From Terriglobus albidus (GTDB lineage Bacteria > Acidobacteriota > Terriglobia > Terriglobales > Acidobacteriaceae), in contig NZ_CP042806.1 in assembly GCF_008000815.1 (NCBI RefSeq), forward strand, positions 2,790,001 to 2,854,000: a DNA stretch of 64,000 bases, written 5' to 3'. Shown here in pieces: positions 3,914-54,618 of this stretch (position 1 is the first letter of the stretch; every line of letters starts with the position of its first letter). The notes under the pieces are model-generated. The model did no database searches. It was not told where the DNA came from and was given only the letters and a program-made list of their open reading frames with translations. Made by a program: the position numbers and the translations under genes.

Positions 3914-5104
3914 ATGCATAGAAAACATCCAAGCAGTCAGGAAAAGCATCTGTCTTTTGTGAGCACTCAAGTGAAGCTCCTTGTCCAGCCCGACGACGGC
4001 ATCAAGCCTCTCCTCGCCGCCATCAATAAGGCAAAGGAAAGCATCCGAATCCTTATCTTCCGCTTTGACCGGTTTGAGATCCAGAAGGCTCTGGTCGCGG
4101 CCGTCGAACGCGGTGTCACCGTCCAGGCGCTGATCGCCTACACAAATCGCGGGGAAGAGAAGAACCTGCGCAAGCTGGAGATGCAGCTTCTCGAACGAGG
4201 CATCACGGTCAGCCGTACCTCCAACGATCTTGTGCGCTATCACGGCAAGATGATGATCGTTGACGATAAGGAACTCTACCTTTTCGCCTACAACTACACC
4301 CACATGGATATCGATCTAAGCCGGTCGTTCGGCGCCGCCATCAAGACGGCGTCTACGGTGAAAGAAGCGATCGAGCTCTTTGAGGCGGATGCCCATCGCG
4401 TTGCATTCAAGTCAAAGTCAAAGAACTCAGGCCTGGTCATCAGCCCGGTCAACGCCCGCGAGCGGTTGACCGACTTCATTCGCAAGGCGAAGAAGCGACT
4501 CTACATCTACGAGATGAAGATCAGTGACGCTGAGTTTATCCGCCTGCTGCAGAAGAAGATCTCGGAAGGGGTGGAGGTCCGCGTGCTCTCCCGCGCCTCT
4601 TCCAAGAGCGATATCCTCCCCGTCCGGAAGATTGCCATGCGTCTCCATGCCCGGGTCATTCTGCGCGATTCGGAATCCGCCTTTATCGGCAGCCAGAGCC
4701 TGCGCAAGCTCGAGTTGGAAGCCCGGCGAGAGATCGGCGTCATCTTCAAGGACACGAAGGTCGTACACCAGATCGAGCGCGTCTTCATGCGTGACTGGAA
4801 GAAGTCCGAGCCGATCGTTCCGGAAAATGCCATGGAGGCTGCCTTTGACGTTCCGGCGAAGAAGGTCGCCAAAGAGCTGGCCAAGAAGATCTCTGTCAAA
4901 CCGGTGATCGAAAGGGTGCTTGACCGGGTGATGGATATCCGCGAGGATGCTCCGTTTGAGCCGGATGAAGTGGTCCAGACCGTCCGCGACGCTGTCCGGC
5001 AGGAGGTCCACGAGGCCGTGGCGGAGGCTCTGCGTAACCTCGCCCTGGACTGTATCGGAACTGTCCCCGACGATCCAGGCCCCGAAAAGGGAAAAAAAGG
5101 ATAG
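3914..5104 (+). CDS. Phospholipase D-like (HKD) protein
   Basis: 396 aa. Two PLD-type halves are visible. The first has a full HKD motif, HGKMMIVDD at about residue 110, followed by a strand/turn with FAYNYTHMD. The second, at about residue 245, reads HARVILRDSESAFIGSQSL, with Arg in place of the HKD Lys. The last ~100 residues are charged and probably helical, rich in Lys/Glu and Val/Ala, outside the PLD fold. There is no signal peptide, so it is probably cytosolic. PLD-like proteins act as phospholipases, phosphatidyltransferases or nucleases, and the sequence does not decide between them. ATG at 3914 is used; GTG at 3959 is an alternative that would remove 15 residues. A structured repeat starts directly after the stop codon. 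Confidence 0.82.
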   Translation: MHRKHPSSQEKHLSFVSTQVKLLVQPDDGIKPLLAAINKAKESIRILIFRFDRFEIQKALVAAVERGVTVQALIAYTNRGEEKNLRKLEMQLLERGITVSRTSNDLVRYHGKMMIVDDKELYLFAYNYTHMDIDLSRSFGAAIKTASTVKEAIELFEADAHRVAFKSKSKNSGLVISPVNARERLTDFIRKAKKRLYIYEMKISDAEFIRLLQKKISEGVEVRVLSRASSKSDILPVRKIAMRLHARVILRDSESAFIGSQSLRKLELEARREIGVIFKDTKVVHQIERVFMRDWKKSEPIVPENAMEAAFDVPAKKVAKELAKKISVKPVIERVLDRVMDIREDAPFEPDEVVQTVRDAVRQEVHEAVAEALRNLALDCIGTVPDDPGPEKGKKG

Positions 5105-5204
5105 GGCATTTTTCCTGTAGGTGTCGTGCATCTATGGGCTTTTCCGCAATGAAAACGCCGCTGCACGCTCCTTCCGGGATACCCAGCAACAGGGAAAATG
5201 CTCT
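5105..5204 (+). repeat. Structured interspersed repeat, copy 1 of 4
   Basis: 100-bp copy starting the base after the TAG of the PLD-like gene. The ends form an inverted repeat (GCATTTTTCCTGT on the left; ACAGGGAAAATGC on the right). Inside are a CGTGCA/TGCACG pair and an inner hairpin GGCTTTTC/GAAAACGCC around CGCAAT. The other copies are at 6946, 7701 and 31944, all in the same orientation. It contains no plausible gene. A MITE/REP-like element or a 3'-UTR RNA structure are both possible. Confidence 0.85.
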
Positions 5205-5293
5205 AGCCGGTCATAAAGCCGCAAATTTCAGGTAGGCGAATTGGAAAGGCAGAACCCACCTTGTTGCGCTTAAGCGGCTATCCTTAAAGTGGT

Positions 5294-6394
5294 ATGCAGG
5301 TGGAGCCGCTTTTCGGGCAGAATCTGGGCGAATTGACCTCCAGGGTGGGTGGTGACACCCGTCGTGCGCGGCAACTGTGGCGGGCGCTCTACCACGACCG
5401 TATCGCGACACTCGATACGCTTGCAGCTCGTCTGCGGGTGCTGCTGCCTGGCGACACAGCGGTGGGTTTACCTGTCATTGCGCAGACGGCCGTCTCTGTC
5501 GACGGCACGGAACGCTACCTGATGCGCCTGGCGGATGGCGAAACCATTGAAACTGTCTGGATGCCGGAAGGGGAGGCCGACGATTTTGATGGACGCGATC
5601 TTCGCAATCGCGGCCGTCTTGCCGACCAGGGATATCAGCGTGCGACGATCTGTATCTCCAGCCAGGTGGGTTGCGCCGTTAACTGTCAGTTCTGTCTCAC
5701 GGCGAAGCTGGGAGTGAAACGCAATCTCACCGGCGGAGAGATCGCCGGACAGGTAGCAGTCGTGCTCAACCGGCACCAGATTCGTGTCGGTGTTGACCGC
5801 ATCAACCTGGTCCTGATGGGCATGGGCGAGCCCTTCCTGAACTACGACGCCGTGATGAAAGCGATCGGCCTGATCGTGCAGGGAATTGGCATCCCGGAAT
5901 CGCGCATTACCGTATCCACCAGCGGCATTGAGCCGGCGATTCGCCGTTTTGCAGTTGAAGCTATCCGGCCAAATCTCGCTCTCAGTCTGAATGCTCCAAA
6001 CGACGCCGTCCGCGAGCAAGTGATGCCCATCAACCGCAAGTGGAAGATCGCTGAGCTGCTCGAAGCGGTGAAGACGATCCCGCTCGGCAAGCGCGGCTGG
6101 ATCAACGTCGAGTACGTCCTTCTTGGGGGCATCAACGATCAGCCCGAGCACGCCTTGCAGGTGCTGGAGCTGTTGCGAGATGTCCAGGCGAAGGTCAACC
6201 TCATTGTCTGGAACCCTGGCCCGGGAATCGCTTACCGTCAGCCGGAGCCGGCCGATGTCACCCGTTTCCATCGCATTCTCGTCGATAACGGTATGCCGAC
6301 CTTTACCCGCCGCCCCCGCGGCCGCGATATCTATGCTGCCTGCGGGCAGTTGAAGCGGACGCTGGAGGAGCCGGAACTGGTTGCCCTTGGTTGA
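5294..6394 (+). CDS. rlmN: Dual-specificity RNA methyltransferase RlmN (radical SAM)
   Basis: 366 aa, usual RlmN length. The enzyme methylates C2 of adenosine 2503 in 23S rRNA and A37 of some tRNAs. The radical-SAM cluster motif is CAVNCQFC, Cys127, Cys131 and Cys134 (CxxxCxxC). It is followed by the family-typical GEIAGQV, NLVLMGMGEPFLNYD, STSGIEPAIRRF and LALSLNAPND blocks, then YVLLGGIND. The second catalytic Cys is in the C-terminal RGRDIYAACGQLK segment. ATG at 5294 gives a normal N-terminal accessory domain with RQLWRALYHDR. It is preceded by repeat copy 1 and followed by a Spy-like gene, so it is probably transcribed alone. Confidence 0.96.
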   Translation: MQVEPLFGQNLGELTSRVGGDTRRARQLWRALYHDRIATLDTLAARLRVLLPGDTAVGLPVIAQTAVSVDGTERYLMRLADGETIETVWMPEGEADDFDGRDLRNRGRLADQGYQRATICISSQVGCAVNCQFCLTAKLGVKRNLTGGEIAGQVAVVLNRHQIRVGVDRINLVLMGMGEPFLNYDAVMKAIGLIVQGIGIPESRITVSTSGIEPAIRRFAVEAIRPNLALSLNAPNDAVREQVMPINRKWKIAELLEAVKTIPLGKRGWINVEYVLLGGINDQPEHALQVLELLRDVQAKVNLIVWNPGPGIAYRQPEPADVTRFHRILVDNGMPTFTRRPRGRDIYAACGQLKRTLEEPELVALG

Positions 6395-6513
6395 TTCGGG
6401 GGCTGATTTTCGGCTGATTATGGTCTGGATTCCGCAACTATCCGGGGCTGTCTGGCTCTGAGTAGGATGAACGCCGCGTCCCGCCGCGAATTTTTAGAAG
6501 GAGGTCATCTTCC

Positions 6514-6945
6514 ATGAAGACCACCCGGGTTTATCTCGCTATCCTCCTCGCCATTATGGTCGTAACACCAGTCGTGATGGCTGTTGCTGCCCAGCAGCAG
6601 GAAGAGCAGGTCATCAATAAGCAGGTTCCCGGCCCTGAGCCGCCGGCGGATCGTATGCTGGCTCTCTACACCAGGAAGCTGAATCTCACGCCAGACCAGC
6701 AGGCGCAGATGAAGCCGCTTCTGGAAGAGCGGCAGCAGAAGCTGACCGCACTGCGCAACGACAGCTCGGTGCGGGGAAGGCAGCGCCTTCATCAGGTAAA
6801 GCAGATTCGCGATGACGAAGACAAGAAGATCAACACCATCCTGAACGACGACCAGAAGAAGCAATACGCCCAGCTGGAAGAACAGCAGATCGAGCGGATG
6901 CGGCAGCACCGTCAGGGCCAGCGGGCGCTTGACGAGGTGCAGTAG
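6514..6945 (+). CDS. Periplasmic Spy/CpxP-like (LTXXQ) small protein
   Basis: 143 aa. A strong Shine-Dalgarno (AGGAGGT, 6500-6506) precedes the ATG. The N-terminus is a signal peptide of about 28 residues ending near AVAAQQ. The mature part is almost wholly helical, Gln/Glu/Lys/Arg rich, with the family hallmark NLTPDQQAQMKPLLEERQQK and a second half NDDQKKQYAQLEEQQIERM. Spy/CpxP-type proteins are periplasmic ATP-independent chaperones or stress sensors. This family call is by motif only, and general acidobacterial members are uncharacterised. Repeat copy 2 begins at the base after its stop codon. Confidence 0.8.
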   Translation: MKTTRVYLAILLAIMVVTPVVMAVAAQQQEEQVINKQVPGPEPPADRMLALYTRKLNLTPDQQAQMKPLLEERQQKLTALRNDSSVRGRQRLHQVKQIRDDEDKKINTILNDDQKKQYAQLEEQQIERMRQHRQGQRALDEVQ

Positions 6946-7057
6946 CGCATTTCTCCTGTAGGTGTATTGCAGGGCTTGTGCATCTATGGGCGTTTTCCTC
7001 AATGAAAACGCCGCTGCACACTCCTCACGGGATACCCAGCAACAGGAGAAATGCTCT
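6946..7057 (+). repeat. Structured interspersed repeat, copy 2 of 4
   Basis: 112-bp copy directly after the stop of the Spy-like gene. The outer arms GCATTTCTCCTGT and ACAGGAGAAATGC pair perfectly. The middle arms TGTGCA/TGCACA and the inner hairpin GGCGTTTTC/GAAAACGCC around CTCAAT also pair perfectly. Relative to copy 1, both partners of the outer and middle stems have changed, so pairing is conserved rather than sequence. Confidence 0.87.
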
Positions 7058-7162
7058 AGTCCAGCGTTTACCGTTCCGGTACACCGTTCCTGTGGATCGC
7101 TGTTTCCGCATCTAACGGAACGTACTCTTGTACGAATACCTCCCCGGAGGATGGGATACGTG

Positions 7163-7678
7163 ATGAAGCCCCGTCTGCTTGTATTTGCAGCTCTTGTTTT
7201 AACTTTTTTCGTTTCTGGAAAGTCATCGCACGCGCAGGCGGTGTACGTCGAAGGAACAGCATCCCGCATCAGCAATTCTGCGAGTGATAACTGGGTCTTT
7301 GGGCCGACAGTTGGCGTTTACTTCGATCATGGCGGCGCTCTTCCGGCTCACATCGGTTTGGATGCGCGCGGCCAGTTTCTTTCCAAAGGTTCGACCAGTG
7401 TTAAGAACTTCATGATCGGGCCGCGGATCTCGTTCGTTCCACACGTCGTGCCCTTCAAGATCTATGGTCAGGCGGAGATTGGGTTTACCAATTACTCGGT
7501 CAACTCTGCCCAGATCGATCACACCGGTTTTGGGTATCAGCTCGACGCCGGGCTGGAGACAACCCTGCTTCCACACATTGACTGGCGTGTGATCGAGTTC
7601 GGGTATCAGAACCTTTCCACCGGTTCGACCACCTACCATCCGGTCAACCTCAGCACCGGCCTGGTATTGCGTTTTTAG
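7163..7678 (+). CDS. Small outer-membrane beta-barrel protein
   Basis: 171 aa from ATG 7163. An ATG at 7151 in the same frame abuts the GGAGG box (7146-7150), leaving no spacing, so 7163 is preferred. The signal peptide has a hydrophobic core and ends at SHAQA. The mature chain alternates polar and hydrophobic residues with Gly/aromatic turns (YVEGTASRIS, GPTVGVYFDH, FKIYGQAEIGF, VIEFGYQNLS) and ends in Val-Leu-Arg-Phe, a C-terminal aromatic typical of outer-membrane barrels. The size fits an eight-stranded barrel. The function is not known. It is bracketed by repeat copies 2 and 3. Confidence 0.78.
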   Translation: MKPRLLVFAALVLTFFVSGKSSHAQAVYVEGTASRISNSASDNWVFGPTVGVYFDHGGALPAHIGLDARGQFLSKGSTSVKNFMIGPRISFVPHVVPFKIYGQAEIGFTNYSVNSAQIDHTGFGYQLDAGLETTLLPHIDWRVIEFGYQNLSTGSTTYHPVNLSTGLVLRF

Positions 7679-7700
7679 GGCTGTTGGGGCCGTCTTCGCT

Positions 7701-7815
7701 AGAGCGCTTTCCCTGAGGGTGCCGTGTAGGGCTTCCGCATCCTATGGGCGTTTTCCGCGATGAAAACGCCGCTGTACGCCCCGTCCGGGATACCCAGCAA
7801 CAGGGGAAACACTCT
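7701..7815 (+). repeat. Structured interspersed repeat, copy 3 of 4
   Basis: 115-bp copy 22 bp after the stop of the barrel gene and ending 18 bp before the CysJ-like start codon. Its ends read AGAGCGCTTTCCCTG and CAGGGGAAACACTCT. The inner hairpin GGCGTTTTC/GAAAACGCC around CGCGAT is intact; the middle stem is weaker than in copies 1 and 2. The element would lie in the leader of the downstream gene if transcription reads through. Confidence 0.85.
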
Positions 7816-7833
7816 AAAATAAAAGACGGACCC

Positions 7834-8982
7834 ATGAGCACAGACAGTAAATACACCCGCAATAACCCGTACCATTCGCGCGTCCTTGTCAATCAGCGTA
7901 TGACGCTTGCCGACTCTGAAAAAGAGACGCGGCACTACGAGCTGGAGCTTGAGCCCGGCATGCATTACACCCCGGGCGATGCCATCGGCATTCTTCCTGA
8001 GAACCGCCCGCACGCGGTGCACGAGGTGCTGGAAACCCTCGGATATACCGGCGAAGAGCGCGTTCTGGACCACTACAAGGTTGAGATCTCCCTGCACGAG
8101 GCCGTGCGTACCCGCCTCGGCATCGGCAAGCTGTCTCGCGGTAGCGTGACCGCGCTGGCCAAGATGGCTGACGGCCATCCCAAGGCGGACGAGCTCCGCA
8201 AGTACACCCTTCCCGAGAACCGTTCCCTCGCGGAAGAGTATGTCTGGGGACGCGAATTCATCGATCTGATTACTGAATTCCCCGGCATTCTCAAGAATCC
8301 GCAGGATCTCTTTACTGTGCTGCAGCGTCTGACGCCGCGCATGTACTCCATCGCCTCCAGCCAGGAGATGAACCCGAACGCCGTGCACACCATCGTGCGC
8401 GTTATCCGCTATGACACCCATGGCCGCGAGCGCCAGGGACTCTGCAGCGGACACCTCGCCGAACGTGCCCCTCACGGGTACAAGATGCCTGTCTTCCTGC
8501 ACGAGAATAAGAACTTTCGTCTTCCCGAGGACACCAATGCCCCGGTCATCATGATCGGTCCCGGCACTGGAATCGCGCCCTTCCGCGCCTTCCTGCAACA
8601 TCGCCAGGCGCTCGGCCACAAGGGCAAGAACTGGCTCTTCTTCGGCGAACAGCGTCAGGCCTCGGACTTCCTGTACCAGAGCGACCTGGAAGCCTGGCAC
8701 AAGGACGGTCTGCTGAACAACTTCCACACGGCCTTCTCCCGCGACCAGAAGCAGAAGGTCTACGTTCAGGACCGCATGAGGGAGCATGCCGCCGAGCTCT
8801 ACAAGTGGCTGGAAGAGGGCGCGTACTTCTACGTCTGCGGTGACGCCAGCCGTATGGCCAAGGACGTCGAGAACGCTCTCCTGGACGCCATCGCCATGGG
8901 CAAGCATGGCACTCTTGATGATGCCAACGCCTACTTGGCCGAGATGAAGAAGCAGAAGCGTTACCAGCGCGACGTCTACTAG
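7834..8982 (+). CDS. Sulfite-reductase-flavoprotein-like FAD/NADPH reductase, no flavodoxin domain
   Basis: 382 aa from ATG 7834. The chain corresponds to the C-terminal two thirds of CysJ and related diflavin reductases. It has an FAD-binding domain with connecting subdomain (PGDAIGILPENRP; RMYSIASS at residue 169, the FAD RxYS motif; QGLCSGHLA), then an NADPH-binding domain (GPGTGIAPFRAF at residue 242, FFGEQRQASDFLY, YVCGDASRMAKDV), ending in RYQRDVY with the terminal Tyr seen in this family. The ~180-residue FMN flavodoxin domain normally at the N-terminus is absent, and upstream DNA is repeat copy 3, not a lost domain. It probably passes electrons from NADPH to a separate flavodoxin, ferredoxin or reductase subunit; the partner is not in this window. 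Confidence 0.88.
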   Translation: MSTDSKYTRNNPYHSRVLVNQRMTLADSEKETRHYELELEPGMHYTPGDAIGILPENRPHAVHEVLETLGYTGEERVLDHYKVEISLHEAVRTRLGIGKLSRGSVTALAKMADGHPKADELRKYTLPENRSLAEEYVWGREFIDLITEFPGILKNPQDLFTVLQRLTPRMYSIASSQEMNPNAVHTIVRVIRYDTHGRERQGLCSGHLAERAPHGYKMPVFLHENKNFRLPEDTNAPVIMIGPGTGIAPFRAFLQHRQALGHKGKNWLFFGEQRQASDFLYQSDLEAWHKDGLLNNFHTAFSRDQKQKVYVQDRMREHAAELYKWLEEGAYFYVCGDASRMAKDVENALLDAIAMGKHGTLDDANAYLAEMKKQKRYQRDVY

Positions 8983-30815: not shown

Positions 30816-31961
30816 ATGTCCCCCGCCGGTCTCTATCTTTCGGTTCCGTTCTGCCGCGCCAAGTGCAGTTACTGCAACTTCGCGTCCGACGCCTTCGGCC
30901 CCGCCCGGATGGATGCGTATGTGGACCGTCTCTGCGAAGAGATCGCCCAGGCGCCGGCAAAGGCTTCCGGCATGGGGGCGACGTTACCCCGGGATGTGGA
31001 TTCGGTGTATTTCGGTGGAGGGACGCCTAGCCTGCTCTCTGCCGTGCACTTTCAGCGCATCTTTGAAGCCCTGCAGGCCGTTTTCTCGCTGCAAACCGAT
31101 GTTGAGCTCACGCTGGAATGCGCTCCGGGGCAGCTTGCGGACGATACCCTCGCGGAGCTGCTTCGTCACGGCCTTAACCGGGTCAGCCTGGGGGTGCAGT
31201 CCTTTGTCGACCAGGAGTCGCGTGCGGTCGGCCGCTTCCACACAAAGGATGTCTGCCTGGCCGAGATCGCCCGTCTGCGCTCCGCCGGCGTGCAGGAGAT
31301 CAATGTCGATCTGATCGCAGGTCTGCCGCATCAGACCCATGAAAGCTGGCGTATCTCTCTGGAGCAGGCCGCTGCGGCAGATGTGCCTCACGTCAGTGTC
31401 TATATGTTGGAGGTCGATGAGGAGTCCCGGCTCGGCAGGGAACTCATCGCAGGCGGCGTTCGCTATCACGCCCACCATGTGCCCGACGATGGCCTGGTGG
31501 CGGAGATGTATCTGGAGGCCTGTGAGTTCCTGGGGAACAACGGCATTCCTCAATACGAGATCTCGAACTTCGCCCGTCCGGGCCATGCCTCCCGCCACAA
31601 CCTTAAGTATTGGAAGCGACTTCCATACCTCGGTCTGGGGTTGGACGCACACTCCATGTTGGGCGGTTGGCGCTTCCAGAACACGGACGATCTGAATGCT
31701 TATCTCGAAGGCAAAGCAGCGCCCGACCCGGTTGTTGTCACGCCGCATGAGGCATTGGAGGAGGAGGTCTTTCTCGGCCTGCGGCTGAATGAAGGAATTC
31801 TTCTTCCTGAAGACGGTCCCGTCGTTCCAGTGCTGCAGCAGTTGGTTCGAGAGGGCCTGATGCAGCTTCAGGGAGAGCGGATTGCTTTGACGCCGAAGGG
31901 GCGTCTTCTCTCGAACGATGTCTTTACGGAGCTTCTAGGCGCTGGAGCATTTTCCCTGTAG
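30816..31961 (+). CDS. hemW: HemW-like radical SAM protein (heme chaperone / coproporphyrinogen-like)
   Basis: 381 aa from ATG 30816, the first Met that gives the family start GLYLSVPFC. The radical-SAM cluster is CRAKCSYC with Cys13, Cys17 and Cys20. Downstream are VDSVYFGGGTPSLL, LTLECAPGQL, LNRVSLGVQSF, INVDLIAGLPHQT and HVSVYMLEVDEESR, and then YEISNFARPGHASRHNLKYW, all typical of HemW, a protein that inserts heme into targets and was formerly taken for an oxygen-independent coproporphyrinogen oxidase. The last five residues GAFSL and the stop lie inside repeat copy 4. Shorter than some HemN, matching HemW. Confidence 0.9.
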   Translation: MSPAGLYLSVPFCRAKCSYCNFASDAFGPARMDAYVDRLCEEIAQAPAKASGMGATLPRDVDSVYFGGGTPSLLSAVHFQRIFEALQAVFSLQTDVELTLECAPGQLADDTLAELLRHGLNRVSLGVQSFVDQESRAVGRFHTKDVCLAEIARLRSAGVQEINVDLIAGLPHQTHESWRISLEQAAAADVPHVSVYMLEVDEESRLGRELIAGGVRYHAHHVPDDGLVAEMYLEACEFLGNNGIPQYEISNFARPGHASRHNLKYWKRLPYLGLGLDAHSMLGGWRFQNTDDLNAYLEGKAAPDPVVVTPHEALEEEVFLGLRLNEGILLPEDGPVVPVLQQLVREGLMQLQGERIALTPKGRLLSNDVFTELLGAGAFSL

Positions 31962-32056
31962 GTATAGAGTGGGGTTTCCGCATCTACGAGCGTTTTCCGC
32001 AACGAAAACGCCGCTGCACTCCTCTTCCGGGATACCCAGCAACAGGGAAATGCTCT
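31944..32056 (+). repeat. Structured interspersed repeat, copy 4 of 4
   Basis: 113-bp copy overlapping the 3' end of the HemW-like gene. Left arm GGAGCATTTTCCCTGTAG contributes the last codons and the TAG stop. Right arm ACAGGGAAATGCTCT pairs with the left. The inner hairpin GCGTTTTC/GAAAACGC around CGCAAC is intact. It ends 21 bp before the threonine aldolase start. Confidence 0.86.
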
Positions 32057-32077
32057 ACTGCCTGAGACAATACTGGC

Positions 32078-54202: not shown

Positions 54203-54618
54203 ATCCCCTCCGCGAGTGCCACTATCGTAGCGCGGCGGACTTGGAAAAGGGGACAGTTAAATGCGGATTCCTTTGCCTGGGTGTGGACAAATTTGTTCGT
54301 GTGGTTTCGTTAGGAAATGGGGGGATTCCACACCCACCCTAGCGTTGCGAGGGTGGGGCACCCGGGGCAGAGATGAGAAGCAGATTTCTCCGCTACGTTA
54401 CGAATGACAAAACAAAAGGTGCCCTAGCTCTGAGCGCTGAAGGCGCGTTCTATATCAGCCTGGGGCAACGCCCCAGGTATCCGGCTCTATAACTCCGCAG
54501 CGAAGTAGCTGAAGAATTCCATCTGGCCATTCGTTTGGGTTGTGTACCTTGGGATGCATGGGGTATCGCGAATATGTCGATGCGCCCTGGTGCTGCGTGG
54601 CCGAAAGGAATGCTGCGG
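54203..54618. repeat. Repeat-rich gap between the VOC gene and the ccmI-like gene
   Basis: 416 bp without a gene. It holds a hairpin CCCACCCT/AGGGTGGG (54333-54357), copy B of the ~38-bp interspersed repeat (54375-54412), and a hairpin CCTGGGGC/GCCCCAGG (54459-54477). The sequence between them looks like the residue of several short elements placed side by side. Confidence 0.65.
54375..54412 (+). repeat. Interspersed ~38-bp repeat, copy B
   Basis: Plus strand reads GAGAAGCAGATTTCTCCGCT then ACGTTACGAATGACAAAAC. It matches, with a few substitutions, the reverse complement of 17206-17243. Confidence 0.7.

What the first reader, a model, noticed from the sequence alone, without database searches (positions are those of the whole stretch)
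5105..7815. Four-copy ~110-bp element with nested hairpins and paired base changes
Copies at 5105, 6946, 7701 and 31944 share outer arms (GCATTT-YCCTGT type), a middle stem and an inner GGCGTTTTC/GAAAACGCC hairpin. Between copies 1 and 2 the outer pair changes from GCATTTTTCC to GCATTTCTCC together with its partner, and the middle pair changes from CGTGCA/TGCACG to TGTGCA/TGCACA. Pairing is kept while sequence drifts, so an RNA or DNA fold seems to be under selection or the element replicates as a hairpin. All four copies have the same orientation relative to the upstream gene. I know of no named family with this sequence.
Basis: seen in the sequence. Interest (0 to 1): 0.8.

Follow-up and report, generated by a model that had tools for sequence, protein, structure and literature searches.

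The report
Stop-codon-landing mini-transposon in soil acidobacteria
The four look-alike stretches are copies of a tiny, gene-less jumping DNA element that is present in a few hundred copies in this soil bacterium, inserts at the letters TA, and sits unusually often exactly on the stop codons of genes without destroying them.

Summary
In detail: four copies (element proper 5104-5203, 6945-7056, 7702-7814, 31945-32055), far beyond chance. They belong to a dispersed family: 200 core matches in the 6.4-Mb host genome, reversed control 0. Relatives lack individual copies: five of 54 flank-pair rows leave exactly one TA where the host has an element, one of them at window copy 2, and a second family (B) is inserted inside two copies. 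So this is a MITE-like non-autonomous transposon, mostly 110-113 bp, with ~15-bp inverted ends. Its target preference is asymmetric (CGNTAR). In 52 of 133 copies the TA is that of a stop codon, versus 10.6% expected from the motif; the element begins with G, so TAG is re-made. The 'paired changes' within this genome are subfamily markers, not significant against a tree-aware null; two of the five middle-stem pairs fail in most copies. Across genera, however, the inner hairpin persists with different sequences (35 of 44), so the nested fold is probably constrained. No transposase with these ends was found. New MITE family; mechanism of mobilisation open.

The parts
5102..5205 (+). copy 1 with flanking TA at both ends (element proper 5104-5203, 100 bp; 11-base internal deletion). 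Left TA plus first G form the TAG stop codon (5102-5104) of the upstream gene
6943..7058 (+). copy 2 with flanking TA at both ends (element proper 6945-7056, 112 bp; end type CTCC). Left TA plus first G form the TAG stop codon (6943-6945) of the gene 6514-6945
   Evidence: empty orthologous site in G015 and G008:
7700..7816 (+). copy 3 with flanking TA at both ends (element proper 7702-7814, 113 bp); old copy shared by G000, G008, G012 and G015
31943..32057 (+). copy 4 (element proper 31945-32055, 111 bp); left dinucleotide TG, right TA
6990..7011 (+). inner hairpin of copy 2 (GCGTTTTC..GAAAACGC); counterparts at 5137-5158 (2 mismatches), 7748-7769, 31990-32011
7029..7046 (+). conserved right-arm core GGGATACCCAGCAACAGG of copy 2; counterparts at 5176, 7787, 32029
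3914..5104 (+). ORF whose stop codon TAG is the insertion site of copy 1
6514..6945 (+). ORF whose stop codon TAG is the insertion site of copy 2

Best explanation
A non-autonomous mobile element of the MITE type (family A), mostly 110-113 bp, usually flanked by TA, with terminal inverted repeats of about 15 bp (GAGCATTTYYCCTGT; 17 with the TA) and an inner hairpin. Shown: it is dispersed in hundreds of copies; copies are present or absent at orthologous sites; where an unoccupied site could be read cleanly it has a single TA. Shown statistically: it prefers CGNTAR targets in one orientation and sits on stop-codon TAs far more often than motif and position predict. Because it begins with G (or A), TA|G re-creates a stop, so insertion at a stop codon leaves the protein unchanged (follows from the sequence). 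Inferred: a transposase encoded elsewhere, lost or not recognised here, acts on the two matching ends, which would explain why both ends change together in subfamilies (CTCC, TTCC, TCCC). Inferred, weaker: the inner hairpin is kept because it is needed for mobility or has an effect in the 3' ends of mRNAs.
For: 200 core matches, 94 + and 106 -, reversed-pattern control 0 and 0; the covariance model matched at all 150 places scored out of 2889 first-look candidates. Empty sites: of 54 flank-pair rows five leave exactly two bases, reading TA (window copy 2 in G015; L085:3979, L093:3165, L095:7572, and the B insertion in L069); others are empty with small slips (copy 2 and L093:3165 in G008, L101:8634, L043, L042). 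Window copy 2: GTGCAG-TA-GTCC empty, GTGCAG-TA-element-TA-GTCC filled; an extra copy before copy 3 in G008 and G012 faces AGGTTATTGGG in G015. Family B nested in A: with TA on both sides in L059; in L069 with altered flanks (GA and CA), where the G008 ortholog of that A copy has TA and no B. TA at both ends in 77 of 133 copies, at one end in 48, at neither in 8. Stop-codon TA in 52 of 133 (43 of the 116 full-length A copies) against 6.8% of intergenic TAs raw and 10.6% motif-weighted, p 1e-17; occupied stop-codon TAs 53 of 484 against 40 of 2383 TAs 11-119 nt downstream. In 34 of 34 sense stop insertions with left TA the next host base is A or G, as a native stop demands. Patchy: at least 55 matches (the number scored) in 4 of 19 same-genus genomes, 1 and 3 in two others, none in 13.
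Against: No transposase with these ends was found: PF13358 (2 in host, 10 in 8 genomes), PF13340 (0 in host, 4 in 8 genomes), PF01609 (15 in host, 19 in 4 genomes) and 7 Y1 genes in the host; none of the fetched genes is bracketed by these ends, although for several no inverted repeat at all was recovered. Exact end patterns with other continuations pair into no long element in the host (by inspection); a partner whose ends continue like A itself was not tested. Target preference and end wear are asymmetric (left TG 17 of 133, mirrored right CA 3 of 133), unusual for a symmetric TA-duplicating transposase. A conserved interior hairpin is not required by a plain MITE. My gene calls cover only 77% of the sampled DNA, so the intergenic background is probably inflated by missed genes; the 11-119 nt comparison is less exposed to this.
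Confidence: 0.87

Rival explanations
1. A single-strand (HUH/Y1, IS200/IS605- or TIRYT-like) element: the right TA belongs to the element, the left CGNTR is the target, there is no target duplication, and the nested hairpins are the substrate.
For: Asymmetric target and left TG excess; inner hairpin kept with different sequences across genera; 7 Y1 genes in the host; tyrosine transposases flanked by inverted repeats are described for Acidobacteria (PMC3733652, passages); head-to-tail arrays in T. albidus.
Against: None of the 7 Y1 genes is bracketed by this element; the inverted repeats found around them are other sequences, strong in L031, L032, L033 and L037. No replication-strand bias: 20 + and 22 - in the six 400-kb bins of positive GC skew, 42 + and 49 - in the ten of negative skew, Fisher p 1.0. 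Matching long inverted ends are not a feature of IS200/IS605 (recalled). I lowered this rival from 0.20 to 0.17 after making the strand test formal.
Confidence: 0.17
2. A structured RNA or terminator element used by the host at gene ends and kept by selection; dispersal is secondary.
For: 52 of 133 copies lie exactly at a stop codon; window copies fold better than shuffles; in 14 orthologous pairs (11 host copies) the hairpin differs at 20 of 374 sites against 61 of 540 in left arm plus spacer, p 0.002.
Against: No general orientation bias (42 vs 30); the sense excess at stop codons (36 vs 17 events) equals what the target motif predicts (67%). No run of U after the hairpin, by eye. Covariation within the genome is not significant. 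Presence or absence differs between close relatives at the same site.
Confidence: 0.12
3. A recombinationally amplified palindrome without any transposase (gene conversion or template switching spreads it).
For: Head-to-tail arrays with near-identical neighbours in T. albidus; no transposase found.
Against: Single copies at TA in unrelated flanks, nested insertion and single-TA empty sites are not expected from homologous exchange.
Confidence: 0.03

Closest known systems
RUP of Streptococcus pneumoniae (107 bp) (PMC2229807, passages)
   Same: about the same length, inverted ends, TA-containing targets, about a hundred copies or more, no protein
   Different: RUP ends resemble those of a resident IS630-Spn1; here no IS with these ends was found, and stop codons are favoured
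ERIC/IRU/RU-1 (127 bp, enterobacteria) (PMC2229807, passages)
   Same: TA at the termini, target duplication, inverted ends; partner transposase unknown (last point recalled)
   Different: other phylum; no sequence comparison with ERIC was run beyond Rfam; end sequence differs as far as recalled
Correia/NEMIS elements of Neisseria (PMC2229807, passages)
   Same: inverted ends plus TA, 107-155 bp
   Different: 24-bp inverted ends; sequence unrelated as far as recalled
YPAL/RU-2 of Yersinia (PMC2229807, passages; closeness to stop codons recalled, the 2006 paper is not held)
   Same: hairpin-forming miniature insertions with empty and filled sites, near stop codons
   Different: no terminal TA, target duplications of 3 to 26 bp
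GTAG REPs and TIRYT-linked repeats (PMC3733652, passages)
   Same: palindromic; [quoted passage not shown] tyrosine transposases with inverted repeats reported in T. saanensis and other Acidobacteria
   Different: REPs are 20-40 bp with a GTAG tag; this element is ~112 bp, lies between TAs and does not bracket the host's Y1 genes

Membership tests
TA-specific bacterial MITE (ERIC/RUP/Correia kind) | short, with terminal inverted repeats | tested here: met
   element proper 112 bp in 65, 111 in 28, 110 in 10, 113 in 8 of 133; ends match at 15.2 of 17 on average in 44 elements
TA-specific bacterial MITE (ERIC/RUP/Correia kind) | no coding capacity | tested here: inconclusive
   an open frame crosses the right half; conservation does not follow codon positions by inspection; no formal test
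TA-specific bacterial MITE (ERIC/RUP/Correia kind) | TA on both sides when occupied, single TA when empty | tested here: met
   TA at both ends in 77 of 133; 5 exact single-TA sites in 54 flank-pair rows; alignment
TA-specific bacterial MITE (ERIC/RUP/Correia kind) | many dispersed copies, polymorphic between relatives | tested here: met
IS630/Tc1-mariner-derived MITE | resident IS630-type element with the same ends | tested here: not met
   PF13358: 2 in host, 10 in 8 genomes; none bracketed by these ends
IS427/IS5-type-derived MITE | resident element with the same ends | tested here: not met
   PF13340: 0 in host, 4 in 8 genomes; PF01609: 15 in host, 19 in 4 genomes; none bracketed by these ends
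REP/RAYT or TIRYT system | repeat flanks a tyrosine transposase gene | tested here: not met
   0 of 7 Y1 genes in the host; L031 has one A copy and L032 one worn copy at a distance
REP/RAYT system | 20-40 bp palindrome tagged GTAG | tested here: not met
   length and consensus
Conserved structured RNA family | match to a known Rfam family | tested here: not met
   window at gathering scores; five loci at E up to 1: none on the element
Conserved structured RNA family | covariation beyond phylogeny | tested here: inconclusive
   not significant within the genome; compensated inner stems across genera, but those elements were found with a model that includes the pairs and no tree-aware test was made there
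Conserved structured RNA family | transcribed with an effect on expression | not testable with these tools
   needs RNA data

The most novel reading that the evidence does not exclude
A family-wide class of acidobacterial elements that move as folded single strands (or through a circular form) and integrate at CGNTAR, so that stop codons are safe landing sites re-made by the element's own first base; the nested hairpin is the transposition substrate and the enzyme is an undescribed or reassigned transposase.
Probability: 0.15. Interest if true: 0.75.

Novelty: new member of a known kind. Interest (0 to 1): 0.45.

Why it matters
It is a repeat family for which my library searches showed no name, with relatives in 16 of 79 genera sampled from one acidobacterial family and copies that differ between close relatives, so it is a source of insertion polymorphism and of false gene starts in annotation. 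The base-exact landing on stop codons, with the stop re-made by the element, is a clear, testable case of how a mobile element can live at high copy in a gene-dense genome. The retained inner hairpin without an identified enzyme poses a direct question about how such elements move.

Tried and rejected
Rfam: one match in the window at gathering scores, Acido-Lenti-1 elsewhere; none at E up to 1 in five loci. RAYT/REP: the best Y1 gene (L031) is flanked by a different palindrome. Partner transposase: PF13358, PF13340, PF01609 and two exact end patterns gave nothing. Plasmid and phage records: no match. Coding peptide: set aside by inspection of per-position conservation. RNA covariation within the host: rejected; RNAalifold gave an uninformative fold there. 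Replication-strand bias: none.

Rows dropped. The 133 elements are the distinct ones among the best 150 of 261 strand-wise matches; a few weaker ones (such as L049:4027, L065:4085, L107:11638, L113:4562) are outside the counts, and the 133 include three B copies and some truncated or cut-off ones. Covariation used 116 of 133, chosen by length and core. In one search, 14 of the 17 pairs were used; n4/L286 and n9/L187 were dropped because the elements differ far more than their flanks, n17/L252 because it is truncated; rows with other gap sizes were not used. The 14 pairs rest on 11 host copies. In the cross-genus set 42 of 47 searched loci were aligned (L125, L130, L131, L332, L351 left out). 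The first count of occupied stops (58 of 481) included genes whose called stop lies inside an element; the strict recount is 53 of 484.
Full report
Observation. The core GGGATACCCAGCAACAGG is found four times at up to three mismatches against 0.09 expected. The copies fold better than shuffles (z -2.6 to -5.6; 0, 0, 1 and 0 of 200 shuffles as good). With flanking dinucleotides they span 5102-5205, 6943-7058, 7700-7816 and 31943-32057.

Genome-wide. The host genome (G000, 6,405,582 bases, one contig) has 200 core matches at up to one mismatch, 94 forward and 106 reverse, and none for the reversed control. The DNA search had 321 first-look candidates, 40 scored, 41 matches; the covariance model scored 150 of 2889 candidates and all 150 matched. 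I fetched stretches around listed core matches plus five 20-kb stretches at round coordinates; with the window, 887,575 bases gave 261 strand-wise model matches, of which the best 150 were aligned; these reduce to 133 distinct elements, among them three B copies and some truncated ones. The five round-coordinate stretches hold four full-length copies, which would scale to about 250 genome-wide. Most of the 133 come from stretches picked by a core match, so the core's own conservation is biased upwards.

Who carries it. Among 61 genomes (host included; strict filters) the model matched in 8: at least 55 places, the number scored, in G000, G008, G012 and G015, 1-4 in four more, none in 53. The host itself is unnamed. 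In 200 genomes drawn from the family 32 matched, 16 of 79 genera, many weakly, with 16 candidates scored per genome.

Mobility. Alignments of the window region with relatives show copy 2 missing in G015, where the site reads GTGCAG-TA-GTCC, and in G008; in the host it reads GTGCAG-TA-element-TA-GTCC. Copy 3 is shared by G000, G008, G012 and G015. An additional copy stands before it in G008 and G012, and G015 is empty there with a single TA. At copy 1 the flanks are too diverged for a clean statement; G012 has a truncated element there. Flank BLAST of the 133 copies against fetched relatives gave 54 rows; five leave exactly two bases, TA, between the flanks, and several more are empty with small slips; others are filled or cannot be read cleanly. 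A second family, B (different interior, same first bases GAGCATTTCTCCT), is inserted at the internal TA of family A in L059, flanked by TA on both sides, and at the same place in L069, where the flanks read GA and CA; the G008 ortholog of the L069 copy has TA there and no B. TA stands at both ends of 77, one end of 48 and neither end of 8 of 133 copies; ends were read from alignment columns, so some losses may be misalignment.

Target choice. In the 45 copies that I did not place at a stop codon and that have left TA, the base after the right TA is A or G in 41, and the third and second bases before the left TA are C in 26 and G in 25: CGNTAR, read with the element. In 52 of 133 copies the TA is the first two bases of a called stop codon, 35 sense, 16 antisense, one both; in the 116 full-length A copies 43. 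Of intergenic TAs 6.8% are stop-codon TAs, 10.6% after weighting by the motif, against 39% observed, p 1e-17; the motif predicts 67% sense, and 36 of 53 events were sense. By strict recount, occupied stop-codon TAs are 53 of 484 (11%), against 12 of 181 at 1-10 nt and 40 of 2383 (1.7%) at 11-119 nt downstream. This nearby comparison argues against a mere difference in selection between gene and intergenic space. The element starts with G (sometimes A), so TA|G or TA|A is again a stop. In all 34 sense stop insertions with left TA the host base after the right TA is A or G, so the stop was native and not made by truncation: an in-frame TA codon inside a gene can only be TAC or TAT (inference). 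My gene caller found 697 genes covering 77% of the sample, so some background 'intergenic' TAs are probably coding; this inflates the enrichment, the local comparison less so.

Fold. In 116 full-length copies, against a null that replays the substitutions on a tree (12 replicates), the best stem pairs are outer pairs 11-104 and 10-105 at E 3.4 and 16, i.e. not significant; the pair of unpaired sites 27-36 ranks above both, and unpaired subfamily sites 35, 79 and 83 rank beside them. Two of the five middle pairs form in 35 and 46 of 116, the other three in 96, 100 and 104. The inner stem hardly varies. The three end types TTCC, TCCC and CTCC are matched left and right in 26, 26 and 11 copies; the other 70 of 133 are mixed, worn or unparsed. 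I read the matched types as subfamilies whose two ends must fit one enzyme (inference).

Across genera the picture differs. In 44 elements (two from the window, 42 of 47 searched relatives' loci) an inner hairpin with at least 8 Watson-Crick pairs is present in 35, against 0.5% of shuffled interiors, with stems such as GGCGTTTTC/GAAAACGCC, GCAGCTTTTC/GAAAAGCTGC, ATGGCTTTTT/AAAAAGCCAT and GGCATTTTC/GAAAATGCC. These elements were found with a model that contains the pairs, so the fraction is biased, and the shuffles kept base composition only; several rows come from one genome or genus. Family B in the host, first met by its nesting, shows GCCGTTTTC/GAAAACGGC. In 14 orthologous filled pairs (11 host copies) the hairpin differs at 20 of 374 sites and left arm plus spacer at 61 of 540 (Fisher p 0.002): modest evidence for constraint after insertion.

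Mechanism. The data fit transposition at TA by an enzyme acting on both ends. I could not find it: 7 Y1 genes, 2 IS630-type, 0 IS427-type and 15 DDE_Tnp_1 genes in the host are not bracketed by these ends. The left dinucleotide is TG in 17 of 133, the mirrored right CA in 3, and the target is asymmetric, so a one-sided, single-strand mechanism is a real rival. It has no linked gene to support it, and there is no replication-strand bias (20/22 against 42/49, p 1.0).

Comparison with print. Bacterial MITEs with TA ends are well known (Correia, ERIC, RUP; PMC2229807, passages). GTAG REPs often provide a TAG stop to flanking genes, and repeat-flanked tyrosine transposases are reported in Acidobacteria (PMC3733652, passages). 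Eight searches of the paper library (listings only, except for the two papers just cited) showed no description of this element; most subscription journals are not held. I file it as a new member of the TA-MITE kind, of unknown IS ancestry.

Noticed in passing
L139, L143, L155, L211, L218, L234, L253 (T. albidus DSM 26559 contigs): Eight head-to-tail arrays of 2-4 copies, period 114-116 (101 once), whose inner junctions read TGC-GANTA or (L143) TGC-GGTTA before (G/A)AGC, i.e. the right-end TC is replaced by three bases, while the outermost left ends that can be seen start like ordinary copies (L211 is cut). Suggests integration of a circular form or a special duplication; unexplained. A GGTTA junction also occurs in L239 (MAG SH_60_12); TA-sharing tandems occur in L065 and L183.
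   Followed up: partly
L059 3840-3969, L069 3885-3985, L063 5714-5837: Second family B with the same first bases of the ends and a different interior and hairpin; 18 exact genome hits of an end pattern that excludes A, some of them B.
   Followed up: partly
L286 versus window 6943-7058; L187 versus L093 4004: At the same place with 95/96% (90/86%) identical flanks the resident elements of two genomes differ at many sites, which looks like independent insertion at one site.
   Followed up: partly
L049 4027-4093: Short derivative (about 47 bp between TAs) made of two right ends facing each other.
   Followed up: no
L031 1303-1953: Y1 tyrosine transposase gene flanked by its own inverted repeat with a CCTGGGGCAACGCCCCAGG palindrome.
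   Followed up: no
window 54433-54477: Acido-Lenti-1 RNA on the minus strand, 43.6 bits.
   Followed up: no
window 7744-8982: The longest ORF starts at an ATG inside copy 3, ahead of a more plausible start at 7834; elements can cause false gene starts.
   Followed up: no
G000, ten loci L305, L306, L308, L310-L316: Ten DDE_Tnp_1 transposase genes with the same score and a 361-aa frame, with ACAGTTTGCGGAAAAAC inverted ends in most of them: an IS of the host in many copies.
   Followed up: no
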